From contig MU646379.1 in the NCBI GenBank assembly GCA_026770585.1, positions 41,429 through 65,584 of the forward strand: DNA of 24,156 nt, given 5' to 3'. Position numbers and translations under genes: made by a program. The notes under the pieces are model-generated. The model was not told the origin of the DNA. It made no database searches and was given only the letters and a program-made list of their open reading frames with translations. Source of the stretch: Baffinella frigidus (Eukaryota; Cryptophyceae; Cryptomonadales; Baffinellaceae). Each line of letters begins with the position of its first letter. The stretch's first letter is position 1. Positions 533 to 24,156 of the stretch are shown here, in pieces.

Positions 533-741
533 CTGGAACTTGGCGACGCGTCCCTTGACCTCCTCGAGCCGCTCGGTCGCAGGGTGTGCCATCGGCGCGG
601 CCCGGTCCGTCGTTTCCTCTCTGCGGCAATGCGGATCGCGGGAGGTCATGTTCCGGACATTCGAAACGTAAGGGGCCTCCTCGTCCTTGAGGTCCTTTAG
701 GTTGTTCGAGCTCCCAACATAGGCGGACACTGGACGTGGTT
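533..741 (-). CDS. Exon 24: segment beginning VSAYVGSSNNLKDL, possibly the next C2
   Basis: Acceptor ATTCTTTTCTGCAG, two bases plus 69 codons, donor CAG|GTGCGA. It includes PVSAYVGSSNNLKDLKDEE, APYVSNVRNMTSRDP and a charged ERLEEVKGRVAKFQ end. The start resembles a C2 opening (strand, NLKDL, then xxPYV), but loop aspartates are weak. A second reading frame is also open; this one was chosen for C2 likeness and phase with exon 23. The gene continues left of the window. Confidence 0.68.
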
Positions 742-1107
742 CTGCAGAAAAGAATGCGTCCTTTCGGATCACATCAGGCCCCCCGAGCCTCTCGGTCGAA
801 TAATGGAGTCTTTTCCGCTGCACGGTTAACGAATTTGTACCACATACCCAGAATGTCAATTTGAAAATAGGCCTATTTTGTCTGCTCCGACCACTCCCAG
901 GGTTTAAAAAACCTTTTTTAAAATACCTGGTTTTGTGAGCGACTTTGGGGAGGGTGACGTCGAGGCGCAGAGAGAGAGAGAGAGAGAGCGACAGAGAGAG
1001 AGAGAGAGTGAGACCTCTGCTTGTGAGCGCCTTTGGGGAAGGTGCCGTCAAGACGCAGCGAGAGAGAGAGAGAGAGCGAGCGAGCGAGAGAAACGGAGAG
1101 AGAGAGA

Positions 1108-1138
<31 letters not shown>

Positions 1139-2533
1139 ACGGAGAGAGAGAGATAGAGAGCGAGAGCGAGAGAGGGAGAGCGAGAGAGAGCGAGCGAGAG
1201 AGAGAGAGCGAGCGAGAGAGAGAGAGACAGAGAGAGAGACACAGAGAGCGAGAGCGAGAGAGAGAGCGAGCGAGGGAGAGAGACGGAGAGAGAGCGAGAG
1301 AGAGAGAGCGAGAGAGAGAGAGAGCAAGCGAGCGAGCGAGACGGAGAGAGAGAGAGCGAGCGAGAGAGAGAGAAAGACCTCTGCTTGAGAGCGCCTTTGG
1401 GGAGCGTGACGTCAAAGCGCAGGGCGAGCTTGGTTTTGAACCCCGCGGAGTTGCGCAGCGGGATTTTGTCGGACTTCATCAGGGGGATGGAGACCGCGAA
1501 CCTGCGGGTGGGGTTTGGGGTTTGGGGTTTGGGGTTTGGGGTTTGGGGTTTGGGGTATGGGGTTTGGGGTTTGGGGTTTAGGGTTCAGGGATTGGGGTTA
1601 AGAGTTTAGGGGGATACCCCCCGGGTGAGCCAGCAGCAACGGCGAGGTTGGGGTTTGGGGGCGAGGATTGGGTATTTTAAAGTTGAGGGTTTAGGGTTGG
1701 GGTTTTCGGGTTTAGGGTTTGGGGTTACCCTTCGAGGGAGCCAGCCGCGACCGTGAAGTTAGGTTTTGGGGTTTGGGAGGTTTAAGTTTCGGGTTTAGGG
1801 TTGGGGATTGTTGGGTTTAGGGTTTAGGGTTTACGGTTGGGGATTGTAGGGTTTGGGGTTTCGAGTTGGGTTGTTCCCTCCGAGTGAGCATGCAGACAAA
1901 GTGAGGTTTGGGAGTTTTAGGTTTCGGGTTTAGGGTTTGGTTGTACCCTCCGAGTGAGCCTGCCGCTACCGCGAGGTCGAGCGGAATCTTCACGAATCCT
2001 GGGAGTGAGGGCTGATGGTTTATGGTTTGTGGTTTGTGGTTTGTGGTTTGTGGTTTGTGGTTTACGGTTTATGGTTTAGGGCTAAGGATGCTGGGCACAC
2101 CAACGACGGCCTTTTTCATGCCGAACGCCTCTTCGTCGAGAAGCGTCACGCGGAGCGTCCGCCCCTCGTGTAGAAGGACACGACACGTGTGCACACGGTG
2201 TGTAGAAGGACACACCAAGTGTCTAGACGGACACGCAAGGTGTGTAGAAGGACACGACACGGGGGGGGGGCACACCGACAACGTTGGCTTTCTTCATGCC
2301 GAACGCCTCCTCGTCGAGAAGAGTCACGAGGAGCGTCCGCCCCTCCACGCCTCCGTCGATCAAAATCTGAAAATCAAATCATTTTATTGTGAGATATAAT
2401 CTACATGACTAAAACGCCAACGTGATAGTCAAGGTGCAGACGGACAACTGATTCCGGGATGAATCGGATTTCGGCATTCCGATGGGTGCTAGGGAGTGAG
2501 AACGAGAGAGATCGGATTGGAGAGAGAGGAAAT

Positions 2534-2600
<67 letters not shown>

Positions 2601-5600
2601 GTAAGTTTGTTGGGGGGGGGGAGAGAGAGACCAAAAGGGAGAACACACGGAGGAAGGAGGGGTGACCATGAGCGTCTCATCCCATGCGGGATTCAACGTC
2701 CCGCGCTGCACTGTCGTCAGTGCCTGCACAGCGAAAACACGCCGTAAATATTCACACAAGAGCGCATTTAGCTCAAGGAGAAATTCGTGGTGTGTCGGGC
2801 CACACGGCCCAATTCGTGGTAATTCGGGCCACATGCCCAAACATTTGCCCATTTTCGGCTGTCACTCTAGTCAGCACTCACCACTTAGTGAGCGTCTCCT
2901 AGGACGCTGGGGTCCAAGGTTGTTCGGCCTCCGTTCGTGTGGGGGGAGGATCGGCACATGCCCGATTCGTTTTCAGGATTCTTGAAGGACCCTGCGACCC
3001 ATGGCCCTGCGACCCTGGAGTAGGGGGCCAAGGTTTGGAGGGATCGGGGCATGACCGATTCGTTTTCGGGTTTCTTGAAGGAGCCGTCTCCGCCTGAGAC
3101 CCTGCGCCCTGAACCCTCAACCCGGGATCTCTTACGCATACATTTATGATTTATAAACTGGATGTCAATGAAAATTACTACACGTCTGCTTTAATATTAC
3201 TAGTAAATATCGTTCTGTGTAGTAACTTTCATTGAATCCAGTTTATAAATTCTAAGTGTTTGCGTATGAGATCGGGGCATGACCGATTCGTTTTCGTGTT
3301 TCTTGAAGGAGCCGTCTCCTCCTGAGATTCTGCGCGGCGCCTCGTCGAGCACCGTGATGCGTACCTGCGTCGCAAGAGAGAGATTGGTAATTTATTCCCA
3401 AACAACCAGCGTCAGCGCCGCACATGCTCGACGCATTGTGCCACTTACTGTACCCCGTGTCAGCCGCGCATACGAGCATTTTCCGGATGGATTCTAACTC
3501 CACCTCCTACATCCTGCGTCGCAACAGAGTGTAGGGGGTGGTCTGTTCAGGAACCAACTCACCATGGAAAACGTACGGGGGTTCTGCTGGTCTTTTCCGG
3601 CTCGGGATTGAGCAATTCTGGCAAAAGTTGCCATTGCGTCGCAACCCGGTTTAGAGGGTTTGCTGCCTCCACGCCAGGCCCTTGGGTGGGGTATTCCATG
3701 TGGGTACATGGAGCCATGAGTGCGTTCTTGGAGCCGTTTTCTTCTAAAACTTGACCTTTGAATACCGTTTTCCCTTGAAAAATTGACTTTTAAATACCCC
3801 CCCCCCAAGAGCCCTCCGTGGGCCCCAACGATAAAATTGATTGGATACCCATACAATCACGTGCTTTCAGAACCACGTGATTGGATAAGGCGTTTCGGCA
3901 CAGACCTCATCTCCACACAAGTATTAATCAATTGCTTTTGGCGCAACGAAATTTACTACACAAATGCTCTACTATTACTTGTATAGGCAAATCGTGTAGT
4001 AATTTTCGTTGCCAGACAGCAATTAATTAATACTTGTATGGAGATTAGACCTGGGGGTCGCTTTTCCCGCTCTTGTCCGTCGCTGGTATGCGCTCCGCAG
4101 AGACCACGGTGACCTGCAGGAGGAAAAATGGGTTTCAATAAATTGTCAAAGACTTGTAGGGTTTGGGGTTACCCTCCAAGGCTTGGTCGCGTATCTGACA
4201 GATTTCTGTCAGATACGTGACCAAACGCCCCTATTTGTGTGAAAATTACCACACACCTCTTTCCCCCCTTCACTTGTAAAAGAATCCCTGTTTTAAAATA
4301 GTCACATTTCTAGCCTCGAGTGGGTCCTCCACCAAGTTTCTGTCGCGAGTAGAGAGCGGTTTGAGATCTGGCGGCCACGAGGAACAAGAGGCGCATTCAT
4401 AGGCTAACGGCCTGAAAATGGGGTAGTTAGGCATACGGCATGGCCTAGGACCTCCTACCGTAGGCCGAGGGATCCTAGGACCAAAAAGTCTCGGCCTACG
4501 GTAGGAGGTCCTAGGCAATGCCGTGGGCCTAACTACCCCATTTTCAGGCCGTTACCCTATTAGCATGGCAAACCTTCACGATTCCGGTACAACAACAGAT
4601 CGACTAGTTCGGAACTAGGAAATAAACATAGTGTTTATCAGATTTCAGTGTGTCTGGTGCGTGTATGGGTTTAGGGTTTAGGGTTTATAACAACATTGGC
4701 GGGAAGGACGAACTCGTCGGATCCGCCCGTGCGTGTCTGGTGCGTGTTTGTCTTATATCTGATATGGAAATTAAAATTTGTCTCAATATATGGAAATACG
4801 TAAGGGTTTCGGGTGCGTGTACCTGAAGCTCGAAGGTGAAAATGGACCCCTATGTGTTCATAGGAGTTGGACGACGGTTAATTAGGGCCCTAAGTAAATT
4901 TAATTAGGACCAGAACCCGGTTTGATAGGTAATTTTCGTTTAAATTAAACATGTCCCCGGATGAATACCTGGAGCTCGAATGACGGGGCGTTGGCGAGAG
5001 AGGCTGAGAGGGCCTCGACGTCTACCCCTGCTTGCCAGTGCTTCAGGGTTTATGGTTTATGGTTTATGGTTTATGGTTTATGGTTTAGGGTTGAGGGGTT
5101 TTAGGGTTTGGAGTTTAGGGTTTTGGGGTTTGGGGTTTGGTCTTTGGGGTTTATGGGTTAGGCTTGAGAGTGTAGTGTTCAGGGTTTAGAGTTACGGGTT
5201 TAGGGTTTAGTGTTTCGTGTAAACCCTCGTGTAAACCTAGGTCTAGGGTTTACAAGGAGCCGAGGTTGCGGCCCGTGTTGAGAGGGAAGGCTTTTTGAGA
5301 GGGAAGGATTCGCAGTAAAGCAACTGACCACGGAATGATTCGCAGTAAAGCAACTGACCACGGAAGGCTTCGCAGTAGAGCAACTGACCACGGAAGGCTT
5401 CGCAGTAAAGCAACTGACCATTCTAAAACAACGAAGGGCTTCGGGTGGGGGGTATGTTTCCTGCGGGGGGCAGGAACATGTGGTCTTACCCCCCCCCTAA
5501 ATGTGGGTATCTAGGCTCTAAGGGCATCTAAGGACGCAAGGTTATGAGGACGTCGGACGCCCTTAGAGCCTAGATACCCACACTAAAAAACCAAAATCGT

Positions 5601-8600
5601 TGACTTGGGAGGATTTCGGAGGGCGGGTGACAAACCTCGAAAAGCCAGATTCACGGTTTGGTCCTCTTCGGATGGCGGTGGTTCCTGGTCATGCAACAAG
5701 CTATCGCCAGCGAGCCCCTTATTTGGACGCGACTCCGTACAAAATTTATAATGTATCTTTTTTCAGGGTTTTAAAAGCCCCGAAATTGTTTTTAAAATCA
5801 TTTTAGAGCCTGTAAGCCCCTCGCCAGAGGACCACCTAAGGGGTCCGCTGGCGAAAGCTTTTGGCATTAGGAGCCATTCACAAGAGTCTCAAGTGGATAA
5901 CATCGAGGACGGATCATGCGCCATTTCCCTCGTCAGACGGTTCAAATTCAAACGTCTGCAGCAGGATTTGGCTTGGGGTGCATCCTCGTTTGATCCACTT
6001 CGTGACTTCGAGCGATTTCAGGGGGGGGCAGGTTCCTGCCCGCCTGGTACGAATCTCATATCGAAACACTAATAATTTATAAACTGGGTTCAATGAAATT
6101 TACTACACATAACGGTCTTTATTAGTAATATTAAAGCAAACGTGCAGTAATTTTGAGTGAAATCGAGTTTATAAATTACAAGTGTTTCCGTATGAAATCT
6201 GCCCTTCGACACGCGATGAGCGTGAGGAGAGGAGACTGGACCGTGTGAGATGAACCATCAAGATCCTTCACGTGGGAGGGCTTCCACACGAGGCTATCCA
6301 TGCGAACAGAATCAAAGAACACTTTAAAATCTGTGGGGAAATGATCAAATGCTGACTTTTGGCTTGTTTCCTGGGCAATAATCCAATAATTAACTTATGA
6401 ATCTGTTCGCATGGATAGATTCGTGTGGAGCCTCGAAACGTCAGATTCGCGATGAAATCTGCCCTTCGACACGCGATGGACGTGAGGAGAGGAGACTGAA
6501 CCGTGTGAGGTGAACCATCAAACTCCATCACGTGGGAGGGCTTTCATAGGGTAACGGACCAAAAATGGGGTAGTTAGGCCTACGGGATTGCCTAGGACCT
6601 CCTACTGTAGGCCAAAATCCCAGGACTTTTTGGTCATAGGAGCCCTATGGCCTACGGTAGGAAATTCCGTAGGCCCAACTACCCCATTTTTAGTCCGTTA
6701 GCCTATGAGCTTCACTGGGGGGTAGGTTCATGCAGGGGGCAAAAGGTGGTCCTCCCCCCCCCTAGACGATCAAAACCATAGACTTGGGAGGATTTCGGAG
6801 GGCGGGTCGTGAATCTGACTTTTCGAGGCTTGCCAGGCGGAAATCGAAAAAGCTAAAATCGGGATTTGTTCCTCTACGGAAGGCGAGTGGTTCGGGGAGG
6901 GGGAGGTTCCTGCAGGAACTATTGTAAAGCAACTGACTTCACTGCAAAGCAACACAGGGCGTCGAACCACCAACCCTCACGGCTTTCGATTTGGGATTTC
7001 AAGGGGGTTGACGTCGGAATCCGTCTCCAACGGCTCCAATTCCCCTTGAAATCGGGAAATCAAAAACCGTCGGTTTGCCCAGGTTATGGGGGTTGGTGGA
7101 AGGGTGGGTAGGTTCCTGCAGGGGGCGGGAAGAGTTGGTCCTGTTCGCGCTGCAAATGGAACTTGAGGTTGATCCTCGCGTTCGCCCCGTCCTGCGGTCG
7201 CGTCCGTCTTCAGTACCAGTCTTGTCCGTGATTAGTACCAGAGCATGCCGGTCGTGTCCGTGATTAGTACCAGAGCATGCCGGTCTTGTCCGTGATTAGT
7301 ACCAGAGCATGCCGGTCTTGTCCGTGATTAGTAACAGGATCCGTCGCGGTCACCACTTCCAAAATTTCCCCTCTCTCTCCTCTCTCTGAGAAGAAAAGGC
7401 ACCCACCCCTTGACGATACCGGAGCAATTTGGCGTTGTAACTTCAAAAACGTCTCTTCTTCCCTGAACTCTGAACCCTCAACCCTCAACCCTAAGCCCCA
7501 CACTCTCTCTGGGAACACGAGACAACCTTGCCCTTCACAATGCTCGAGCCGTTGGGGGTGCGTAGTTCGTAGAACTGCTCGAGGTCCCCCTCTTCCCCGC
7601 CGCCCTCCGCCTTGTTCATGATCGAACAAACTGCGTGCGGGCAGGGTATATCAGATTTTACGATGTGGAAATACAGTGAAAATAAACATTTTTGCGAGAT
7701 GGAGATAAAGATTCGTCTCGTTATGATGACTACATACGCGGGTGTACGTTATCGCTTCTGGCACGGCTGCGAGACATCCCCCCAGAAGAAGAGAACTGCT
7801 CGAGGTCGGACCCCTCTTCCCCGCCGCCCTCCGCCTTGTTCATGATCGAACACACTGCGTAGCGGAGGGCATATATCAGATGTACACCAGGGAAACACGC
7901 CACAAGTGTTGGGAATTGGAGCCCTTCGTGGGCGCTGCAATGTTTTTTTGTACCACGACTAGCGCGAAACGTTGCGTGTGAAATTCCCACTTGTGACATG
8001 GCGTTGCATATTTATCTCGATATGATGGGTGTATATCGATATGATGCGAATGCAGAACTGCTCGAGGTCTGACCCCTCTTCCCCGCCGCCCTCCGCCCTG
8101 TTCATGATCGAACACACTGCGTGGCGGAGGGCGTATATCAGATATACATATACGACATGGAAATGGCGGAGGGCATATATATCAGATACACATATACGAC
8201 GTGGTTCATGATCGACACACTGCGTGTGGGGGGAGGGCATATCAGATATATATATCTAATATGGAAATTAAAGTGTGTCTCGATATATGGAAATACGTGC
8301 GGGTTTCGGGGAAACACCAGACACACACGGGCGGATCCGACGAGCTAGTCCTTTCCCATCGTGTTCTTGAAACCCCTTGGTTACGATATGGAATAACGAT
8401 TCGTCTGGATATGATGAGTGTATATACGGCTGCGAGGCAGTGTGCTCGATCAAGCAGTCCTCTTTTTCTAGCCCCTAGAAGAAGAGGACTGCTTGATCGA
8501 GCACACTGCCACGCGGTCACGCGGTGGTCACGCGGTGCTAGTGCCCCCATTAACCGACGGATAACGTCACGCAGTGGTCACGCGGTGCTAGCGCCCCCAC

Positions 8601-11600
8601 TCACCGAAGGATAAGAGCCAGGTCACACGCCAGACCACACATCAGAATTGAAGGGCGGGGCACCCTCCTCTTAAGAGCGTTTCCTGGTACAAATGAAACA
8701 TTATTGCGCATGACAATAGCTCCAATTTCTGACTTTGAACCGCTCGAGATCCGACCCCTAAACCCTAAACCCGAAAACCAAAACGCACCAGGCACACGCA
8801 CGGACCCCACGAGCTCGTCCTTCCCGAGGGTGTTCTTATCAAAGATCTGAACCCTAAATCCACCTCTTAGCAGCCACTGGAGCCTTCAATGATGTGTCCA
8901 TCTACACGATTCTGGTACACATTGCAGATACGGGGCTTGAAATGCCCTCAGAAATCCGGGGGGGAAGGGCCACGGTGGCTGCTAAGTGGATACGCGATCT
9001 GTCCTTCCTGTTGGTGTTCTTGTAAACCCTAAAACCGAAACCCAAACACGCACCCGGCACACGCACAGATCCGACGGTTAGCTCATAGAGTTAAGTGTTT
9101 AGTATCTAGTATTTAGAAGTTGCGGTTCAGTGTTTGAGTTTTCGGGGCCAGGAAAAATACCAGGCACACGGACTGACCCCACGAGCTCGTCTTTCCCGAG
9201 AGTGTTTTTGTCGAAGAGCTGAATGTTGATGTTGCCTTTGATGTTCTTGCGATCCGTGAAGGTGACCTCTTCGTCGTTCCACGACCCCGCGTACCCCTTC
9301 ATCACCTGGTATAGGGTTTAGGGTTCAGGGTTTATGGTTTGTGGTTTGTGGTTTGTGGTTTGTGGTTTGTGGTTTGTGGTTTGTGGTTTGTGATTTATGG
9401 TTTATGGTTTATGGTTTATGGTTTATGGCTTATGGTTTAAAGTACAGGATTTAAGCGTTTATGGTTTATGGTTGATGGTTTCTGGTTTGTGGTTCAGGGT
9501 TTAAGTTTATGGTTGTCCCGGCGTACCCCGTCATCACCTGGTCACGTCCCATCAGCAGATTATGGTCACGTCCCATCAGCAGATTAGATGGCCTGGTCGC
9601 CTGATCAACATCCTCCCTCTTCGTATTCTTCCCTCTTCTTCGGAGGGCTGATGCAAGTCCTACTGAAGCTCCGTGGCGTGCCTTTCGAATTCTATCCGGG
9701 GTCTCGAAGGGGCCGTAACGTGACCAACTTTTGAGCGAATATTTTCAAAATTCACACGATCATCAATGAAATTGGACACGATCAGCCATTTTGTCAAGAA
9801 AAAAGATAAAAAGTGGACACGATTAACAAAAAATTCGTTAAAAGTTGGTCACGTTACGGCCCCTTTGAGACCCTGGAGAGGATCCGAAAGGCACGCCACG
9901 GAGGTCCAGTAGTCAGGACGGCATCCAGTCGGCAGCCAGCAGACGACAGGTCCTGGTACAAAACATTGCATAGTTCGGTCAACTGCTCCCATCCACGTAC
10001 GAAAGCTGACTCATAAGACGGTCATGATGACGCGGAAGGGGGTCGTTTGGCGGACGAGACCTTGGTCTCGTGTCGCTCTTGTCCCAGCGCGATGACAAGG
10101 TACGGGTCGATCGTCGAAAATTAACTGACAGACCGGTCAAGAAGACTCGGGAGGGGGTCGGTTAGGGTTTAGACGGGCGGGACCTTGGTCTAGCGTCGCT
10201 CGTGTCCGAGAATGATGACACGATACGGGTATACGTCGGTCACGAAAACACTCAAGGGGGTCGTTTGGAGGTCATGATAACGCGGAAGGGGTCGTTTGGC
10301 GGACACGGGGGTCATTTAGGGTTTAGGCAGACGGGACCTTGGTCTCGCGTCGCTCGTGTCCGAGCATGATGGCACGATACGTGTACAAGACGGTCATGAT
10401 GACGCATACGACGGTTATGCACACACAGAAAGGGGTCGTTTGGCGGACAAGGGGGTCGTTTGGCGGACGAGACCTTGGTCTCGCGTCGCTCGTGTCCGAG
10501 CATGATGACAAGATACGGGTCGATCGTCCCGAGACGGTCGGTCTTCGGGAGGTGCTTGTACCTGCACACGATAGCCCCATTATGATTATGATTATTATTA
10601 TTATTTTAATTTTATTTTATTTGTTTCATCCTCACTTTATTAATAAGCACGGGAAGCGCTCCACGGGACGATGCCCCCACGCAGGGCTGGAGGGGGGGGT
10701 ACTCAACAGTAATTTTTCAGGGACATGGTTCTCAAAAGTCATCTTTTACCAGTAAAACGGCTCCAAGAACGAGCAAACGGCTCCAAGAACGAGCATGGAA
10801 TACCCTACCCAAGGGCCTGGAGTGGCCAGGACGATGACTGTGCCGTACAAGATTTCTCGAGTGTCAGAGAGGTTCAGTGTTTCGGGTTTGGGAGAGGGGC
10901 CGCACCCAACAGCAGTGACCGTGACCGACCACTTTTGGTGCTCCTCCTCCCCAAAGTCACCCTCCTCCTCCTCGCCCCCCTCCTCCCCCCCTTCGTGATG
11001 TTTGAACGCGATCTGGACCGCAGTGCGCTTGCCGTTGTGTCCGTAGAGCGGCTGCCACTCCTCGGTTGACATCTGCCGCCATAAGTCAACTCAGTTGAGA
11101 AGTCAACTCAGTTGACATCGGGCCTCAGTTGACATTTGCCGTTGTGTCCGTAAAGCGGCTGCCACGCCTCGGTCGACATCTGCCGCGCACTGTCGTCAGC
11201 AAAATGTGACAATAATTCAAAACTGATACCCGTCAGTATTAAGCATGCGGGCTTGTTTGAAGTAGGGTGTGGGGTGTAGGGTGCAGGGTGTGGGGGGCCC
11301 TTGCGGTCCTTTAGGTTCTTCGAGCTCTAAACCCTAAATTCTACACCCTAAACCTTAACCTCAACCCTCCGCCCTCCGCCCCAAGTTTTTGGACTCGTAA
11401 CGGTTGCGACTTGTGATCCGTAGAGTGGCTGCCACGCCTAGGTTGACACCTGCCAAACGCGCGGTCGTATAGGTTATGAACACCAATGATCTGATGCGGG
11501 TAGATCATACAGTCCCATGGGACCAGATATGCGAGCGTAGGCTGAGAGTGGCTGCCACGCCCTCGGTTGAAATCTTGAAATCTGCCGGGAAGAGATTTCG

Positions 11601-14600
11601 CTCAGACCGCCCCGTGGGCGGGCTGGGTTCTGGGCGGGAGGTTCCATCCGTGCCTCCTGAGAACCGTCCAGGACCAACCGCCGGATCCAGAGACATTTCT
11701 AGTCAACTATCTGATGCCTTTAGGTGTTGCCTGATACCGCGCACATGCTGTGTCGTGTGCCCCGGGGGACTCTTCCTTAAGACGGGATGTACCAATCTGA
11801 TCGCGTCGAGTATCTATTAATACTCTCCGCCCATAGGGAATTGGTGACCAGTAGGCTCATACGCCCTACCGTAGGGCCCTAGGACCTGCCTAGGGCTTTG
11901 TTTCGGAAGTCCGGGCGTGTGCGGCCGGTGGCCTTCTTTCTGACGGGAACGCTCTAATTTCCTAGAGCGAGTATCTAAAGTATTGGACAAAATAGGTGAG
12001 CGCAGGCTGAGAGTGGCTGCCATGCCTCGATTGACCTCTGCCGGCAGAAGTCAAAACTCAGTTGACATCGGGCCTCAGTTGACATTTGCCGCACCAAAAC
12101 AATAAAACAATGCCGAAAGTTGACACCTGCCGCGCGCACCCAAACGGTCGAGTCATCTGTTTGCTGAATGACGCGAAAGAAATTTCTTTAAAAGTCATTT
12201 TTCAGGGACATGGTTCTCAAAAGTCATCTTTTACCAGTAAAACGGCTCCAAGAACGAGCAAACGGCTCCAAGAACGAGCATGCGGAACTGTTTCAAGTAG
12301 GTTCTTGGACCCACACTCGGCGTCTGGGAAGCGCGTTCGCCCCCAGCGCCGCCTGAAACACCGGTTTGTGTTATCTTACAGGTGAAATTTGGTATCTTAG
12401 CCCTGGATATAGCTTTACCATCGAACACGCCCCACACGTAAGATAGCACATCTTGGACCCGCACTCAGTGGGATTCGAAGGAGATTTCGACCGAAAGTCC
12501 GATCAAATTTCGGTTAATAGAATGTCTTTGTACCGAGAAATTCTTAATTATCACCACAAAAATGAAAGTACCGATTTACCAAGCCCACTCTGTGGTCGGA
12601 AAGTCCGCTTCACTTTCGAGAATTCCACCAACCCTCACAGTCTGGGCAAATCGGGAAAAATGGCTCCAAAAATCCCCTTGAAGGCCGTCGGATTCCGACG
12701 GCCTCCAAGGGGATTTGGTGTTTTTGACTTTTTCGATTTGCCCAAGTTGTGAGGGGTGGTGGTTGGAGAACTGAATGAGATGAATGGTCTTCTGGTCGAG
12801 GGATGAGAGGTCCACTTGCGCGACGCCCAGGAAGTCTGCCTTCTTCCACACGTGGCTATCCATGCGAACAGAATAAAAGGACATTTTAAAATTTGTGGGG
12901 AAATGATCACGTTTCCGTACGCATGTCCGTACGGAAACGTGATCAAATGCTGACTTTTGGCGTGTTTCCTGGGCAATGATCCAATAATTAACTTATGAAT
13001 CTGTTCGCATGGATAGCCTCGTGTGGTCTCGGCCCCTCATCAAACAAACATCGGCAAATACTCCAGTACAAAAAACGTCAAAATGTCTTGCATATGTAGT
13101 TCGTGAGGGGACAGATAAACAGACCTGAATGAGATGGGTGGTGCTCTGATCGAGGGATGAAAGGTCGACTTGCGCCACCCCCAGGAAGTCCGCCTGCTTC
13201 ATCTGTTGTTTGAGGTTTAGGATGTTAATGGGGTAACGGCCTGCTTCATCTGTTTGCCACGCGCAGTTTCATAGGGTAACGGCCTGAAAATGGGGTAGTT
13301 GGGCATACGGCATTGCCTAGGACCTCCTACCGTAGGTCGAGGGATCCTAGGACCAAAAAGTCTCGGCCTACGGTAGGAGGTCCTAGGCAATCTCGTAGGC
13401 CTAACTACCCCATTCTCGGCCATCTGTTTGCCACACGCAGTGAGCGCCTTTGTTTGCATCGTTTGGCCCCGCACAAAAAGAAAACGCCAAACGGTGACGG
13501 CGCTGGTAGTAAACTGTCAGCTTTTGGCTTTGTTGGGTTGTGTTCGTGGCTTGGGGTTGAGGGGACGAGAGGTCGACTTGCGCGGCCCGGAATTCGGCAT
13601 GCTTTACTGGTTTAGGGTTTGGGTTAAGCGTTTGCGGTTGAGGATTCGTTTCGTGGCCAACGGATGTGAAGAACACTCTATACAAAAGGCATAGGAAACG
13701 TTACCGTGTTGTGGGCGTAGGGATTGATTCGGAGATCGGCAATTAGGATCCGGCGAGCAGGGTTTGGAGTTTCGAGTACTACACTGCTATAAAAACAGCA
13801 TGAAAAACGTTACCGTGTGGTGGTCGTAGAGATTGGTTTGGAGCTAGGCGTGAGGATCCGGTGAGGGGTTCTGACGCTACACGCCAAATCTTATTCGCAA
13901 ACACTTATAATTTATAAACCGAATCCAATGAAATTTGATACACATAACGATCTTTAGTAGTAATATCAAAGCAAACGTGTAGTAATTTTGATTGATTGAT
14001 TCCGGTTTATAAATTATAAGTGTTTCGATATGAAGTCGTAACGATCTCATCGCGTCCCTCCATCGATTCTATCTCAGATTTCAGCGGGGCTTGGAGCCAT
14101 TCTGTACATTTAGAAGCTTTAATTTTTTTCGATCTGTGCCAGAAATCGTTTACATGGACAGTTTCTGAAATACAATCTATGAGGGGGCCCGATGAGATCC
14201 GGACCGAGGGGTGCCCATTCTGATCTCCATACAAGTATTGATTAATTGCTTTCTGGCAACGAAAATTGCTACACGATTTGCTTATACAAGTAATAGTAGA
14301 GCATTTGTGTAGTAAATTTCGTTGCGCCAAAAGAAATTAATTAAATTAATTAATACTTTTGTGGAGATGAACTCAGATCGACCCAGAGAGGTTGTGACCC
14401 TACACGCCTGATGAGATAAAAACAGCATGGGGAACGTTACAATGTTGTGATCGTAGAGATTGACCCCCAGCAGGGCGTGGGCCCCTACCTAGACCTGGGT
14501 AGGAGAGTATTGGGCTACTCGCCACTGAAAGGAGAAACACAGCGTGGGGAACGTTACCGTGTTGTGATCGTAAAGATTGGTTCGGAAAATCCCTTGTATG

Positions 14601-17600
14601 ATCTGGCGTGCAGGGTTTGGAGTTTCGAGCACTACACTGCTATAAAAAAACAGCACGGGGAAGGTTACCGTGTTGTGATCGTAGAGGTTGAGCTCCACGA
14701 GGCCCTCCGGATCCGCCCCCGCGAAGAAAAACGGCTGCGCGAAACGCCACGTCAGGGGTCTGCTGATTCCATCGCGTCATCTAACAGATTATATTGCGCA
14801 AATACACCACCTCAAGGATTCCCGGTGCAAATCATGAAATTCTTCGAAGAAAAACGACTGCCGGGAACCCATGTCAGATGTTTCATGTAGTCGTTGTTTG
14901 TCTGTAGTCCCGCCCAGCTGTGCTTTCTCAATCAAGCACCTCTCTTTCTCTCAGAGACAGGGATCTGATGGAACATACACCCCTCGAATCGCAATATTCT
15001 CAAGGCCCCAGGGTAATAAAGAAGAAGAACCACGACCGTAGGGCCCTACGCATTGGCCTACTGTAGGTTCCTAGGGGGGGGCGGTTTCATATGAGCGAGG
15101 TACCCCTGTAACCACTGGGCTCCGCGGGGAATCTCCGTCAACTTTGACGGCATGGCCACTTATATGTGGCAGGAGGGCTATCCCTTCCACACGAGAATTC
15201 TAGAGGGACCTGATTCAAACCGATGTGCTTTTCAAAGTGGGCGTTTTTGTAGTAAGTTTCGTTGATTGGTCACGCAACTAGCCGAAATAAGTCCAGGCGC
15301 GAGGTTGGAACACCCTATCCTGGTACAGATATTTACAACCCCACATTTAAATAGGACCCTCCAGCATTCTCGAGTGGAAGGACGGAGGCGTACAGCCCAC
15401 CTACCCTAACACAGGCTACCGTAACACATACTTACCCTCCACACATATTCCTTCGGCCGGCCCCCGATTTCCCCCTGCAAGGAAGTATGCCTGAAGGGTG
15501 GACACCATAACGCATACCTACCCTCCACACATACTCAATCAGTCCGGCCCCGACGGGCATGTGTTAGGGTAGGTCCACTGTACATCGTCGTCGAATTTGG
15601 CGTCGTAGCAGTTGCTCTTGTGCTTCGTGGTGCGTGTCTCTCCCTCGTACTGCGGCGCCAGGCAGACAGCTTCAGGCTTCAGGGTTTGGGGGATAGACGT
15701 TGGGAAATAGGGCGCCATCCAAGTCGAGACAAGTCGGCACCCACCATATTCATAGTGACGCAACCTATAATTCGTTTTGTAAAGTAACTCGTTCCTGGTA
15801 CAAATTATAAAATGAAACTTCGTTTAAAAAGGAATTGGAGCCCTTTTTAGTTTTAAATGGACTTTGTTTTATAATTTGTACCAGAACGAGTTACTTTACA
15901 AAACTTAATATAGGTTGCGTCACTATTAATATCCAAGCTAGATCGACATCTACCATACTGGGTGACCGTTTTCGTGTCAGCGTCGACGTGTCAGCAGAGC
16001 TCCCTCTCCCTCTCTCCCTCTCCCTCCCTCTCTCCTTCTCCCGCTCCCTCTCCCTCTCTACCCCTGGTTTCCTCCCCCAATCGCCCTCTCTGGCCCAGAG
16101 AAAGAAGGTGACGGGATGACCGTCTTCGTAGCAGAGAACATGAGCGAGTCAACGCGGCGACGTTAGACGAGGCTGTCCGACACTTCAATCACCATAAAAG
16201 TATTAATTGATTGCTTTTCGGCAACGAAACTTACTACACGATTCGCTCATAAAAGTAACAGTAAAGCATTTCTGTAGTAGACTTCGTTGCGCCAAAAGCA
16301 ATTGATTAATACGTTTGTGGAGATGAACTTCGCGAAAGAAACGCGTACCAGGTAAAAAGTGCACACTAGTTCTATGCCATAACATAGTGGGTATACATCC
16401 CTTTCCCAGCCCCTCCTAAAAACAGCCGTTTGGTTCATTGGTGTAGAGCGCTGTGCAGAGAAGTTGGCCACGGGAAATCATGAGAAATCGAGAAATTGGA
16501 GCCATTTTGTCAACTTTTTAGAAATTTAGTACCATGAATTTCTCAAAAGTGGACAAAATGGCTCCAATTTCCCCATTTCCCCATTTTTCGGTGGCCCTCT
16601 TGCAAACAGCCGTATGGTTCATTGGTGTACAACGGGCAGGCTCAGATAAATTTGAAGGAGAGGGCTCAAATTTGAACGGGAAGGCTTTTGTAAATTTGAA
16701 CGGGAAGGCTCATATTTGAACGGGAAGGCTACCTTGATCTCGACGAAAGGGTCGCATTTGCCCATCATGTCCGCCTGCGTCGATTTTTGGGTTCAGGGTT
16801 TGTGGTTTATGGTTTATGGTTTATGGTTTATGGTTTATGGTGTATGGTTTATGGTTTATGGTTTATTGTTTATTGTTTATTGTTTATTGTTTATTGCCTA
16901 TGGTTTATGGTATATGGTATATGGTGTAGGGTTTATGGTTGAGGGTTTGTGGTGTAGGGTTATCCAACGAGACCCATCACCTGACGAGACGTCCTCATCA
17001 CGTTCCCTAAACCCCAAACCCTCAACCCTATTTTATTTGTGACGCGCGATCTTCTCGACCGCCTAGGCCCAGCCACCCATTCTCCACGGTCCCGCCTCGC
17101 ACGATTCGCAATGGATACGCTGATCACGTACTTCAGGCTTGATCTATCACGATGTCACACCATAAATATAGCCCTTTCCTGATACACGGCGTTTGCTTCA
17201 GGAAAGGATGGAAAACTGTGAATTCATGTGACCACGTCTTTGTCACGTACCTTGGGGAGGTTATTGACGGACACGATCACGATCGACACACCCTCCTGGC
17301 CTTTCTACCACGAATTCATCTTATCACATCCACATCACGCCCACACACGCACCTCGGGGAGGTTTTTAACGGACACAATCGCAATGCACACACTGGTCAC
17401 GTACCTTGGGGAGGTTCTTGACGGACATGATGACGATCGACACACCCTCCTGGCCTAGCGTGCCAGACGGGCACGCAATCGAGTCCATGCCCACCACGTC
17501 CCCCCCTCCCTCGCTGAACGACGTCTGGATGTAGAGTTGCCCGCAGCAGGGAATCCCCCCTTCCAAAAGCCCGTGGAGCGTCAACTCCTTGTCGAGCTGC

Positions 17601-20600
17601 GGCAGGTTCAGAACCTGTGTGTGGAGAGATTTTCAGATCTAAAAGCGGCGAGTCTTGACTTCCACCAACCCTCACGGAAGGGCCAAATCGATTGATTTCG
17701 ACCTGTTCCCAAAAGTTGATTTTCAAGCAAGATTGGGACTTCTTAAGTTGTAGACACCCCAGATCTGGGGTGTCTGCAAGGTGAATCTGAGGTCGGAAAA
17801 TCGACGATTTGGTCCTTCCGTAAGGGCTGGTGGTTTCAATGCCCCCCGCCCGGTCAGCCCGTAGGGAATTGGAGCCGTTATCGTAATATCTGAAGAAAAA
17901 GCTCCAATTCCCTATGGCAGCGGGTATTTAAATTACATACGGGATCCCACCCTCCAGCAAGTGCCTGCAGCTTCAACTTCTTGTCCAATTGCGGTAGGTT
18001 CAAAACCTGTGTAGTGCAATTTTCAGACTCGCACAGAATTGAGGGTTTAGGGTTTAGGGTTGATGGTTGATGGTTTAGGGTTTAGGGTTTAGGGTTTGGG
18101 GTTTGGGGTTTAGGGTTTAGGGTTCAGGGTCCAGGGCTCAGGGTTTCGGGTTTCGGGTTTCGGGTTTAGGGTTAAGGGTTTAGGGGTTTGAGTCATAAAG
18201 CGCCCCGGGGATGGAGTGAGAGGGGGTTTGAATTTCAAACCCTAAACCGAAACAGTAAACCCTGTTCTCTAAACCCTAAACCCTCACAGTTGCAATGCAG
18301 ACATTAGGGTGCAGAGAGTAGGGATGGACCGGACACGAGGCTTCTCCCATGTTGTGCGGTGCGTGGAACAGCCCCGCCGGCAGGCTCGTGAACGCCCGCG
18401 TGACCGGTCACGCGGACACCGAAGCCAGACGGTCGGTCGTGACTGCCTTGCGTGTTCCTAGATGGTGGTGGGAGTAGAGAGTAGGGATGGACCGGACACG
18501 AGGCTTCTCCCATGTTGTGCGGTGCTACCTACCATGAACCCTCAACCCATCTCTGGCGTACCTGGGTTTGGAACCAACGGCAAAGAAATTTACTACACAA
18601 AGGCTACACACATCTCTCTACAAACCGATTCGGGATTTGGGGATTAGGGTTGGACCTGACAGAATGCTTCGCCCATGTTGCGCGGGGCCGCGCCTCTCTC
18701 CCAGACCTAACTCCTAAACCCTTAACCCTTACCCGTAAACCCAGTTCTTTAAACCCTAAAGCCGGACAGTTGCAACGCATGATGTAGGGTGTAGAGAGAA
18801 GGGTTGGGCCGGACACGAGGCTTCGCCCATGATGAGCGGGACTACCTACCAGGAACCCTAAAAGCACCTGAAAATCTCTCTACAAACCGATTGGGGATTT
18901 GGGGATTAGGGTTGGACCGGGAGCGAGGCTTCGGCCATGTTGCGCGGGACTAGCAACCAGGAACCCTTCACCCACCTGGCAATCGTGCTACCAACCGATT
19001 CGGGATGAGGGATTCAGGTCTGACCGGACAGGATGCTTCCCCCATGTTGCGCGGGGCCCCTCCTCTCTCCCAGTCGAGCACGTTGAGCTGTGCGTGTGGG
19101 GTTCCGGGGTAAGGACTTCGGGTTCAGAGTTTTTCAAGGTCAAGGGCCTAGGGTTTTAAGGTTTAGGATGAAATCGTGAGGGGAGAGTGCGCTCCTCTCT
19201 CCCGGTCGAGCACGTTGAGCTGTGTGGTACATAGGGGTTTGGTGTTTGGTGTTTGGTGTTTGGTGTTTGGTGCTTGGTGCTTGGTGTTTGGTGTTTGGTG
19301 CTTGATGTTTTGTGTTTGGTGTTTTGTGTTTGGTGTTTGGTGGTGCTTGGTGCTTGGTGTTTGGTGTTTGGTGCTTGATGTTTGGTGTTTGGTGTTTGGT
19401 ATTTGGTGTTTGGTGTTTGGTGCTTGGTGTTTGGTGTTTGGTGTTTGGTGTTTGGTGTTTGGTGTGTGGTGTTTGGTGCTTGGTGTTGGGTGTTTGGTGT
19501 TCAGAGTTTGGGGTTTGGGATTTAGGGTTTAGGGTTTAGGGTTTAGGGTTTAGGGTCTAGGGTTTAGGGTTTAGGGTTTAGGGTTTAGGGTTCAGGGTTC
19601 AGGGTTCAGGGTTCAGGGTCTAGGGTTTAGGATGAAATCGTGAGGGGAGGGACTGACCTCGAGCACGGACTTTGAGGAAGTGCACGAGAATTGGAACGCC
19701 TGCACACCAGGGTTTGGGTTTCAGGAATTAGGGATGAGGGATGAGGGTTTAGGGTTTAGGGTTTAGGGTTTAGAGTTTAGGGTTCAGGGGTTATGGTTTA
19801 GGGTTTAGGGTTTCGCCGAAACACCAAGGACCAAAAAACGTTTGAACCAGCAGGAAACGCGAAGGGAAAAACCTCGTCCCAGCGGGGGTTGAGAGTGCCC
19901 TTCCGAACGCTCGTCTTCTCTGACGCCCCGTCCACCGTCAACACCACGAAGGGGTCCGCCTGGGGTAGATGTTAGGGTCAATGGAAATGGACTGGCAAAC
20001 GGGATCATGGCTCCAAGGAAATTTATTTAGGGGCCTAATTAATCTTAGTCCAGCTCCTATGCTCAATAAGGACTGGGGAACGCTGGTCTTTTCAGACGCT
20101 GTCATCACCACGAAGGGATCCGCCTGGGTCAGGGTTAAGGGTTAGTGGAAATGAACTAGCAAAAAGCTCTCGCGATCCGCACCGTGAGCATTCAAAAAAC
20201 TTTGCAAATAAAATGTACTACACAGAACGATCTTTACTAGTAATATTAAAGCAAACGTGTAGTAAGTTTCATTGAAATCCAGTTTTTTAAACTAAACGAT
20301 TTTCCACATTAGATCCGCACCGTGACCATTCCCGACACTTCTTTCTCGCACCGAAAATTACCACACAATGGGGCCATACTACTAATAGTAAAGCATTTGT
20401 ACAGTAATTTTCGTCGGCCAAAACCCCCCATAATTTATTCGTTTCCGGAGTTAAGGTTTGTAGGGACGGAGTTAAGGTTTGTAGGAGGGGGCGTGTGCCT
20501 CCGGAGTTAAGGTTTGTAGGGGGCGTGTGCCTTATGGGTGAAGGTATCCATCTTAGGCAACCCCTCGCCTCTCTTGACCCGCACCGTCAGCGTTCCTGGT

Positions 20601-22949: not shown

Positions 22950-23015
22950 TGGCGTTGTCGTGGGCGACCACCGTCCCTTTCTTGGCCAAGAAGATCACAG
23001 TCTGCCGCGCGCCAA
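22950..23015 (-). pseudogene. Acceptor-side echo of exon 1
   Basis: RQTVIFLAKKGTVVAHDNA copies PQTVTFTDKKGTVVGHDKT; lies upstream of exon 1. Confidence 0.78.
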
Positions 23016-23202: not shown

Positions 23203-23368
23203 CAGGGTAACGTCCTGCAAACCGGGTAGTTAGGCCTACGGTATTGCCTACGGTAGGCCGTAGGGCTCCTAGGAACTTATGTTTCGTAAGAACCCCCCTA
23301 GGCCCCTACGGCCTCCCGAAGGCAATACCGTAGGCTTAACTACCCGGTTTTCAGGGCGTTAGTCTATG
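23203..23368. mobile_element. Foldback MITE, family B, divergent
   Basis: CAGGGTAACGTCCTGCAAACCGG left arm and CCGGTTTTCAGGGCGTTAG..CTATG right arm, with TACGGTATTGCCTACGG inner arms. Confidence 0.8.
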
Positions 23369-23966: not shown

Positions 23967-24003
23967 CTGGGGTACGGCGGTGTTGACGAGGAACCCTTTG
24001 AAC
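23967..24003 (-). CDS. Tentative exon, FKGFLVNTAVPQ
   Basis: After a weak AAAAAAG acceptor, an open stretch reads FKGFLVNTAVPQ and ends CAG|GTTTCC in phase 0. A degenerate donor-side copy reading LLDTARAIPQ|GTCTCC lies downstream at about 23826-23855, the same pattern seen for the firm exons. The acceptor abuts a foldback element at 24012, so the true 5' boundary may be disturbed. It could be an echo rather than a used exon. Confidence 0.3.
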
Positions 24004-24011
24004 CTTTTTTC

Positions 24012-24156
24012 GCTAACGGCCTGAAAATGGGGTAGTTAGGCCTACGGCATTGCCTAGGACCTCATACCGTAGGCCGAGGGATCCTAGGACCAAAAAGTCT
24101 CGGCCTACGGTAGGAGGTCCTAGGCAATGCCGTAGGCCTAACTACCCCGTTTTCAG
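24012..24156. mobile_element. Foldback MITE, family B, cut by window end
   Basis: GCTAACGGCCTGAAAATGGG to CTAACTACCCCGTTTTCAG; the last bases of the right arm lie outside the window. Confidence 0.85.

What the first reader, a model, noticed from the sequence alone, without database searches (positions are those of the whole stretch)
533..22601. Exon-edge echoes: introns built from ordered partial copies of their flanking exons
Nearly every exon is accompanied by 1-5 degenerate copies of one edge, each holding exon end, splice junction and some intron. By my count about 18 copies of exon starts lie upstream of their exon and about 32 copies of exon ends lie downstream, with three clear exceptions (LTVRI at 20.2 kb, inverted exon 15 copy at 4.7 kb, SSKNL at 11.3 kb). 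This ordering is what repeated local duplication seeded at splice junctions would leave. I know of no described mechanism with this signature; consequences could be decoy splice sites, alternative exon ends or junction-directed repair.
Basis: seen in the sequence. Interest (0 to 1): 0.95.

Follow-up and report, generated by a model that had tools for sequence, protein, structure and literature searches.

The report
Insertions that duplicate nearby exon edges
In this unnamed 382-Mb eukaryotic genome, introns hold many short local copies of exon edges in a strict order, most likely because DNA inserted by break repair duplicates some tens of bases around the break and only insertions that leave the exon whole survive.

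Summary
The window holds a minus-strand multi-C2-domain gene (23 modelled exons). Farther copies are more diverged (rho -0.42, n=31).

It is not special to this gene: 24 kb of other open stretches have the same density of local direct duplications (29.7% against 30.7%), and a WD40 gene there shows the same order. The order needs no junction seeding: a duplication spanning one edge leaves its spare copy on that side, because the working exon is the copy still joined to the rest; unbiased simulations give the same order. 14 of 46 edges are hit, within the simulated range. A modest preference for exons is not excluded: 16 of 27 families touch one, more than in most runs.

Young copies at offsets over about 50 bp are short (median 46 bp) and parted by about 160 bp, in half the cases mainly a recognisable insert. 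This fits staggered-break repair with filler, known from Daphnia and rice. Splicing roles are unproven.

The parts
23967..24020 (-). E1 (uncertain); acceptor lies in the end of a foldback element
   Evidence: (dispersed foldback hits across the edge)
22518..22601 (-). E2
   Evidence: likeness to homologue columns judged by eye
20912..20965 (-). E3 (uncertain)
20531..20595 (-). E4 (inferred GC donor)
19873..19959 (-). E5
19658..19699 (-). E6
19025..19087 (-). E7
17405..17614 (-). E8
16733..16774 (-). E9
15584..15649 (-). E10 (corrected end)
14669..14734 (-). E11 (corrected start)
13125..13193 (-). E12
10906..11072 (-). E14
10474..10561 (-). E15
9161..9305 (-). E16
7527..7630 (-). E17
4051..4113 (-). 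E18
3563..3583 (-). E19 (uncertain)
2667..2723 (-). E21
2276..2366 (-). E22
1947..1998 (-). E23
1379..1501 (-). E24
533..741 (-). E25 (start uncertain)
22955..23005 (-). copy of E2 start region, upstream
22346..22389 (-). copy of E2 end, downstream, GT kept
21331..21892 (-). copies of E3, upstream; the one at 21603-21670 keeps both AG and GT
20078..20163 (-). copy of E5 start, upstream, AG kept
19192..19224 (-). copy of E7 start, upstream, AG kept
18286..18948 (-). five copies of E7 end, downstream
17941..18027 (-). copy of E8 start, upstream, AG kept
17242..17393 (-). two copies of E8 end, downstream, GT kept
13673..14579 (-). four copies of E11 end, downstream, GT kept
12767..12846 (-). near-whole copy of E12, downstream, donor lost; foldback element 12846-13026 lies between it and E12
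11136..12092 (-). copies of E14 start, upstream
10036..10384 (-). three copies of E15 end, downstream, GT kept
9517..9538 (-). copy of E16 start at the far end of the heptamer array
9307..9514 (-). heptamer (telomere-type) array between E16 start and its copy
8787..8851 (-). copy of E16 end, downstream, GT kept
8312..8369 (-). copy of E16 end, downstream, GT kept
4689..4741 (+). inverted copy of E16 end (exception)
7792..8247 (-). three copies of E17 start, upstream, AG kept
2093..2167 (-). copy of E22 end, downstream, GT kept
1615..1893 (-). copies of E23 end (1615-1648 GT kept, 1870-1893 GT lost) lying among heptamer arrays
933..1058 (-). copies of E24 end, downstream, abutting GA-rich arrays
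3042..3335 (.). intron-only example: 66-bp direct repeats (3042-3107, 3270-3335) on either side of foldback 3126-3273
6192..6546 (.). intron-only example: 95-bp direct repeats (6192-6286, 6452-6546) on either side of a relative of element 12843-13026

Best explanation
Shown: short stretches (tens of bp) of this genome are duplicated locally in direct orientation at high density, in introns and across exon edges, with other DNA often lying between the two copies. Inferred: these are scars of staggered DNA-break repair. Nicks on opposite strands some 20-100 bp apart are filled in, so the stretch between them ends up on both sides of whatever filler is joined in (foldback element, telomere-type or other simple repeat, or unknown sequence). 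When such an event straddles an exon edge, one copy stays joined to the rest of the exon and still works; the other becomes a spare in the intron, upstream for exon starts and downstream for exon ends, by geometry. Events wholly inside an exon break the protein and are lost. Repeated hits, and duplication of earlier copies, push older copies outward. No seeding at junctions is needed.
For: Order: 34 of 38 copies, 15 of 17 edges. Unbiased simulation puts 396 copies on the predicted side and 16 on the other (printed totals of eight settings summed by hand). Farther copies are more diverged, rho -0.42, n=31, p=0.02 (copies not independent). Same density elsewhere: 4,836 of 16,286 usable bp outside (29.7%), 5,150 of 16,759 in the window (30.7%); same order, 9 of 9 copies, around four exons placed by eye in another stretch with a WD40 match. 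Young pairs at offsets over about 50 bp: 0 of 33 head-to-tail, median block 46 bp, median gap 162 bp, 16 of 33 gaps mostly array, foldback or dispersed repeat. At offsets 12-65 bp, 26 of 35 are head-to-tail, as expected when no filler is caught. Arrays flanked by abutting direct repeats: 5 of 44 against 1.0 expected, p about 0.003; foldbacks 3 of 46 against 0.8, p 0.04 (strict setting). Printed precedents.
Against: In 17 of 33 young pairs the sequence between the copies is unidentified. At the strict setting 39 of 44 arrays and 43 of 46 foldbacks have no abutting repeat, and the foldback excess fades at other settings (p 0.02 to 0.69). With insertion-type events the simulated share of families touching an exon is 0.21-0.49; the observed 16 of 27 (0.59) was reached in 7 of 240 runs, all with the longest duplications tried; with plain tandem duplication in 22 of 240. 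In settings whose duplicate coverage is nearest the real one, mean edge counts are about 8-13, so 14 is on the high side though within range. Some copies break the rule: an inverted one 4.4 kb away and one 10.6 kb away. Exon and intron parts of copies are about equally diverged (1097 of 1286 and 620 of 747 identical), whereas a constrained exon should lower divergence; truncation of local alignments may hide that. Arrays were masked, so a tandem unit containing an array would look spaced (3 of the 33).
Confidence: 0.6

Rival explanations
1. Plain head-to-tail tandem duplication, with later insertions between the copies; the order again follows from which copy stays joined to the exon.
For: Head-to-tail duplications exist (26 of 35 at offsets 12-65 bp; the E15 and E7 families). 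Unbiased simulation reproduces the order and the edge count in many settings.
Against: Among young pairs at offsets over about 50 bp none of 33 is head-to-tail although the copies are 88-97% alike; later insertions would have to fall exactly between the two copies.
Confidence: 0.18
2. Junction-directed duplication: breaks or insertions are drawn to exon edges (for example by transcription or splicing structures), so echoes are more than chance.
For: 16 of 27 families touch an exon, above most simulated runs. Simple arrays lie within 30 bp of an acceptor at 7 edges against 2.9 expected, p=0.003; all edges 10 against 5.7, p=0.005; within 60 bp 12 against 9.0, p=0.07.
Against: The edge count, 14 of 46, is within the simulated range. 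11 families are intron-only. The simulations have no masked repeats, which in the real window hide intron-only families. Arrays near acceptors may be kept because they help splicing.
Confidence: 0.12
3. Echoes are kept by selection as decoy or alternative splice sites.
For: The splice dinucleotide is intact in 23 of 26 junction-crossing copies against 19.2 expected from other dinucleotides in the same alignments, P=0.054. One E3 copy (21603-21670) keeps both AG and GT.
Against: Not significant, copies not independent, and the test left out beforehand the E3 end, both E12 edges (where two of the losses lie) and the edges E1 start, E10 end and E18 end with dispersed hits. An E15 copy at 10181-10228 carries a stop.
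Confidence: 0.05
4. Copy-and-paste of short segments by template switching or via RNA.
For: Distant or inverted copies exist: 4689-4741, 11299-11327.
Against: Random pasting would put copies on either side of the exon; 34 of 38 are on one side.
Confidence: 0.05

Closest known systems
Staggered double-strand-break repair in new introns of Daphnia pulex (PMC4202315; passages read)
   Same: [quoted passage not shown] repeated internal breaks lengthen introns; 55 of 90 neointrons have internal direct repeats unlikely by chance.
   Different: There the exon-derived repeats are 4-12 bp and the introns are new; here blocks are tens of bp, with up to five copies per edge, and the introns' ages are unknown.
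Patch-mediated break repair giving tandem duplications in rice (PMC7971508, passages; Vaughn and Bennetzen 2014 and Schiml et al. 2016 seen only in its reference list)
   Same: Short local duplications; their share of insertions falls above 125 bp; not tied to junctions in the passages seen.
   Different: Rice events are described as tandem duplications; here most visible young ones at larger offsets enclose filler.
Small tandem duplications from Pol alpha-primase fill-in at broken ends (PMC8355091, passages)
   Same: Fill-in of complementary 3' overhangs (about 50 bp in the tests) duplicates up to that length.
   Different: Mouse and human cells, engineered breaks, no large filler in the passages seen.
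Intron gain by tandem duplication across an intron-exon boundary in potato RdRp (PMC4974935, introduction)
   Same: One duplication crossing one boundary.
   Different: A single event that made a new intron; here dozens of copies at introns of one gene.
Interstitial telomeric repeats inserted at breaks in mammals (PMC2246262, passages)
   Same: Telomere-type repeats as filler, sometimes with duplication of the target (6 of 130 rodent, 4 of 25 primate loci).
   Different: Heptamer type here, denser, with a strand bias towards CCCTAAA on the coding strand.

Membership tests
Staggered-break repair scars with filler | Direct repeats flank the inserted DNA | tested here: inconclusive
   5 of 44 arrays and 3 of 46 foldbacks have abutting direct repeats, against 1.0 and 0.8 expected (strict setting); 16 of 33 young gaps are mostly recognisable insert
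Staggered-break repair scars with filler | Insertion and duplication arise in one event (empty site known) | not testable with these tools
   no second allele or relative held; most of what was fetched is withheld
Staggered-break repair scars with filler | Occurs irrespective of exon edges | tested here: inconclusive
   same density in other stretches, 11 of 27 families intron-only, but the share touching exons is high
Head-to-tail tandem duplication | Copies adjoin, block length equals spacing | tested here: not met
   0 of 33 young pairs at offsets over about 50 bp; met by 26 of 35 loci at offsets 12-65 bp, of which one in the window touches an exon (E8)
Introner elements | One mobile family creates many introns and supplies splice sites | tested here: not met
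   edge copies are copies of their own exon; dispersed elements lie across or within 3 bp of only three edges (E1 start, E10 end, E18 end), each a different family
Duplicated alternative exons | Second complete exon with both splice sites | tested here: not met
   copies hold one edge only, apart from E3 and E12 copies; the downstream E12 copy has lost its donor, one E3 copy (21603-21670) keeps both AG and GT. Splicing itself could not be tested
Multi-C2-domain protein gene | C2 domains (PF00168) | tested here: met
   4 stretches, E 4.3e-59; homologues P0001-P0003 at 32-37% identity in the alignment

The most novel reading that the evidence does not exclude
Exon edges, acceptors above all, are preferred sites of breakage and of insertion of telomere-type repeats in this lineage, each event copying the edge outward, so that introns grow from their ends by a repair pathway that reuses splice junctions.
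Probability: 0.15. Interest if true: 0.85.

Novelty: new variant of a known kind. Interest (0 to 1): 0.5.

Why it matters
If right, intron growth in this lineage can be read as a layered record of repair events with exon edges as fixed reference points: insertions that would wreck an exon survive because the duplicated stretch rebuilds it. It links break repair, telomere-type filler and intron length in a testable way, and warns gene finders that partial exon copies with intact splice dinucleotides are common here.

Tried and rejected
Junction seeding as the default was set aside after the simulations and the comparison with other stretches, with the reservations stated. My own first idea, plain tandem duplication, was weakened by the spacing of young copies. 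BLAST self-comparison appears to drop pairs at offsets under about 50 bp (a rule I recall; the head-to-tail arrays were indeed missing), so I scanned those offsets separately; the simulations used the same BLAST route. The first-pass E10 end and E11 start were wrong by frame and corrected; the edge count stayed 14 of 46, while searches used the old ends. Two stretches first printed as E13 and E20 were left out of the model by judgement. Dispersed repeats in the window were judged against 50 kb of flanks of which only 3,169 bases were open, helped by a foldback filter, so some dispersed copies may remain among the local ones. The percentages are invalid because withheld bases were counted as usable; one search replaces them. 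tblastn of homologues against the flanks is uninformative for the same reason. The genome-wide family search did not complete. No structure prediction or RNA-family search was made, and the organism was not identified.

Full report
What is there. The window is bases 41429-65584 of contig 77 of a genome of 382,457,362 bases in 1364 contigs. On the minus strand lies a gene for a protein of several C2 domains: joined exon translations match PF00168 in four stretches (E 4.3e-59), and three unnamed homologues align along it (32-37% identity; by BLASTP 29-36%, covering 62-99% of the query). I modelled 23 exons; E10 and E11 were corrected later. E1, E3, E4 end, E19 and E25 are uncertain and at least one exon between E17 and E18 is missing.

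The copies. Masked self-comparison gives 181 pairs; 73 are direct, within 3 kb, and not flagged as dispersed or foldback. They form 27 families, of which 16 touch a modelled exon. The exceptions are three E3 copies seen from its end edge (three E3 hits from its start edge count on the right side) and the near-whole E12 copy. Per edge it is 15 for, 1 against, 1 tie. Rows dropped before these counts: hits over 30% dispersed, hits overlapping exons, inverted hits, hits beyond 5 kb, and hits with fewer than 5 exon or 2 intron bases. Across 31 copies with at least 8 exon and 5 intron bases, identity falls with distance (rho -0.42, p=0.02); copies in a family are not independent.

Why the order is expected. 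If a duplication spans one exon edge, the copy that remains joined to the rest of the exon is the working one, so the spare copy of a start is upstream and of an end downstream. A simulation with random duplications, rejected when they break an exon and partly when they copy a whole exon, put 396 copies on the predicted side and 16 on the other (59, 22, 74, 35, 80, 32, 62, 32 against 0, 0, 6, 0, 5, 0, 1, 4).

Is there seeding at junctions? Edges spanned by at least 5 bp on both sides: 14 of 46. Means per setting run from 8.1 to 22.8 with plain tandem duplication and from 6.7 to 18.3 with insertion-type events; an earlier set of eight settings, with a different overlap rule that leaves out whole-exon copies, gave 2.2 to 7.8. 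Duplicates cover 22.9% of the whole real window and 30.7% of its usable intron; settings with coverage near that gave means of about 8 to 13 edges. So 14 is on the high side but within range. The share of families touching an exon, 16 of 27, is higher still: reached in 22 of 240 and 7 of 240 runs. The simulations have no masked repeats, whereas part of the real window is masked simple repeat (2,749 bases) or foldback (3,383 positions), which hides intron-only families; how much that explains is my inference. A preference of up to about twofold is not excluded.

Is it this gene only? No. I fetched 200 kb from ten contigs and 50 kb of flanks; most was withheld, leaving 24,138 open bases in six stretches. 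Near direct duplications cover 29.7% of their usable bases and 30.7% of the window's; shuffled sequence gave none. One open stretch (L026 and L027 joined) holds a WD40 match (PF00400, E 2.1e-7): the exon near 9413-9513 has start copies at 9170 and 9313 upstream and an end copy at 9771 downstream; three other exons placed by eye add two start copies upstream (412, 8242) and four end copies downstream (862, 986, 1917, 2042), 9 of 9 in order. In L015 a 36-bp stretch, perhaps an exon start, occurs three times with CCCTAAA-type arrays exactly between.

What the copies look like. Young pairs (at least 88% alike, at least 28 bp) at offsets over about 50 bp: none of 33 is head-to-tail, median block 46 bp, median gap 162 bp; 16 of 33 gaps are mostly simple array, foldback element or dispersed repeat and 17 are unidentified. 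Counting all ages in the window, 3 of 49 adjacent pairs have a gap of 20 bp or less. At offsets of 12-65 bp, 26 of 35 loci are head-to-tail. Inserts abutted by direct repeats exceed random placements at the strict setting: 5 of 44 arrays against 1.0, 3 of 46 foldbacks against 0.8; over the nine settings tried p runs from 0.001 to 0.04 for arrays and from 0.02 to 0.69 for foldbacks. Clear cases: E16 start, then a heptamer array (9307-9514), then the copy; 3042-3107 and 3270-3335 around foldback 3126-3273; 6192-6286 and 6452-6546 around a relative of element 12843-13026.

Mechanism. The best account is staggered-break repair: fill-in duplicates the stretch between two nicks and filler may be caught between. 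The pieces are in print for Daphnia neointrons (PMC4202315, passages: exon-derived repeats of 4-12 bp), rice (PMC7971508, passages), mouse and human cells (PMC8355091, passages) and telomere-repeat insertions in mammals (PMC2246262, passages). A single potato case crosses an intron-exon boundary (PMC4974935, introduction). A survey of short direct repeats near intron borders exists too (PMC11782384, abstract). I found no paper on ordered, tens-of-bp exon-edge copies at this density in the listings, which cover open-licence papers only.

Function. The splice dinucleotide survives in 23 of 26 junction-crossing copies against 19.2 expected (P=0.054; E3 end, both E12 edges and three edges with dispersed hits were left out beforehand): a hint, not a result. 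No transcript data were available.

Noticed in passing
15391-15582 and 1-192: A 192-bp element with inverted ends occurs twice (98% identical, opposite strands). The copy at 15391-15582 starts in the 5' splice site of E10, whose donor reads GAT|GTACAG with TACAG from the element's end; an insertion at a TA that left the donor usable is my inference.
   Followed up: partly
window, C45o (L026+L027), L003, L014, L015, L016: Telomere-type heptamers show a strand bias: CCCTAAA-type on the coding strand 161:39 in the window and 154:29 in C45o, where homology gives the strand; 13:2 in L003 and 33:5 in L015, where I judged the strand by eye. L014 (15:4, TTTAGGG-type on +) and L016 (12:3, CCCTAAA-type on +) have no assigned strand. 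TTTAGGG holds AG and, when repeated, GT; CCCTAAA holds neither, so selection against cryptic splice sites is a possible cause.
   Followed up: partly
exon starts E4, E6, E9, E15, E16, E23, E24: Simple arrays lie within 30 bp upstream of 7 acceptors against 2.9 expected when arrays are placed at random within their introns (p=0.003); they may serve as pyrimidine tracts (inference).
   Followed up: partly
24012-24156, 4399-4560, 6544-6708, 13268-13421, 21070-21228, 23208-23361: A foldback family recurs; one copy ends in the acceptor of E1.
   Followed up: no
3906-4048: A foldback element of another recurrent family starts within 3 bp of the end of E18.
   Followed up: no
10705-10797 and 12190-12282: 98% identical 93-bp pair 1.5 kb apart across E14, related to 3669-3822 inverted.
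   Followed up: no
4701-4813 and 8251-8356: One stretch holding an E16-end copy was copied 3.5 kb away, part direct and part inverted, across E17.
   Followed up: no
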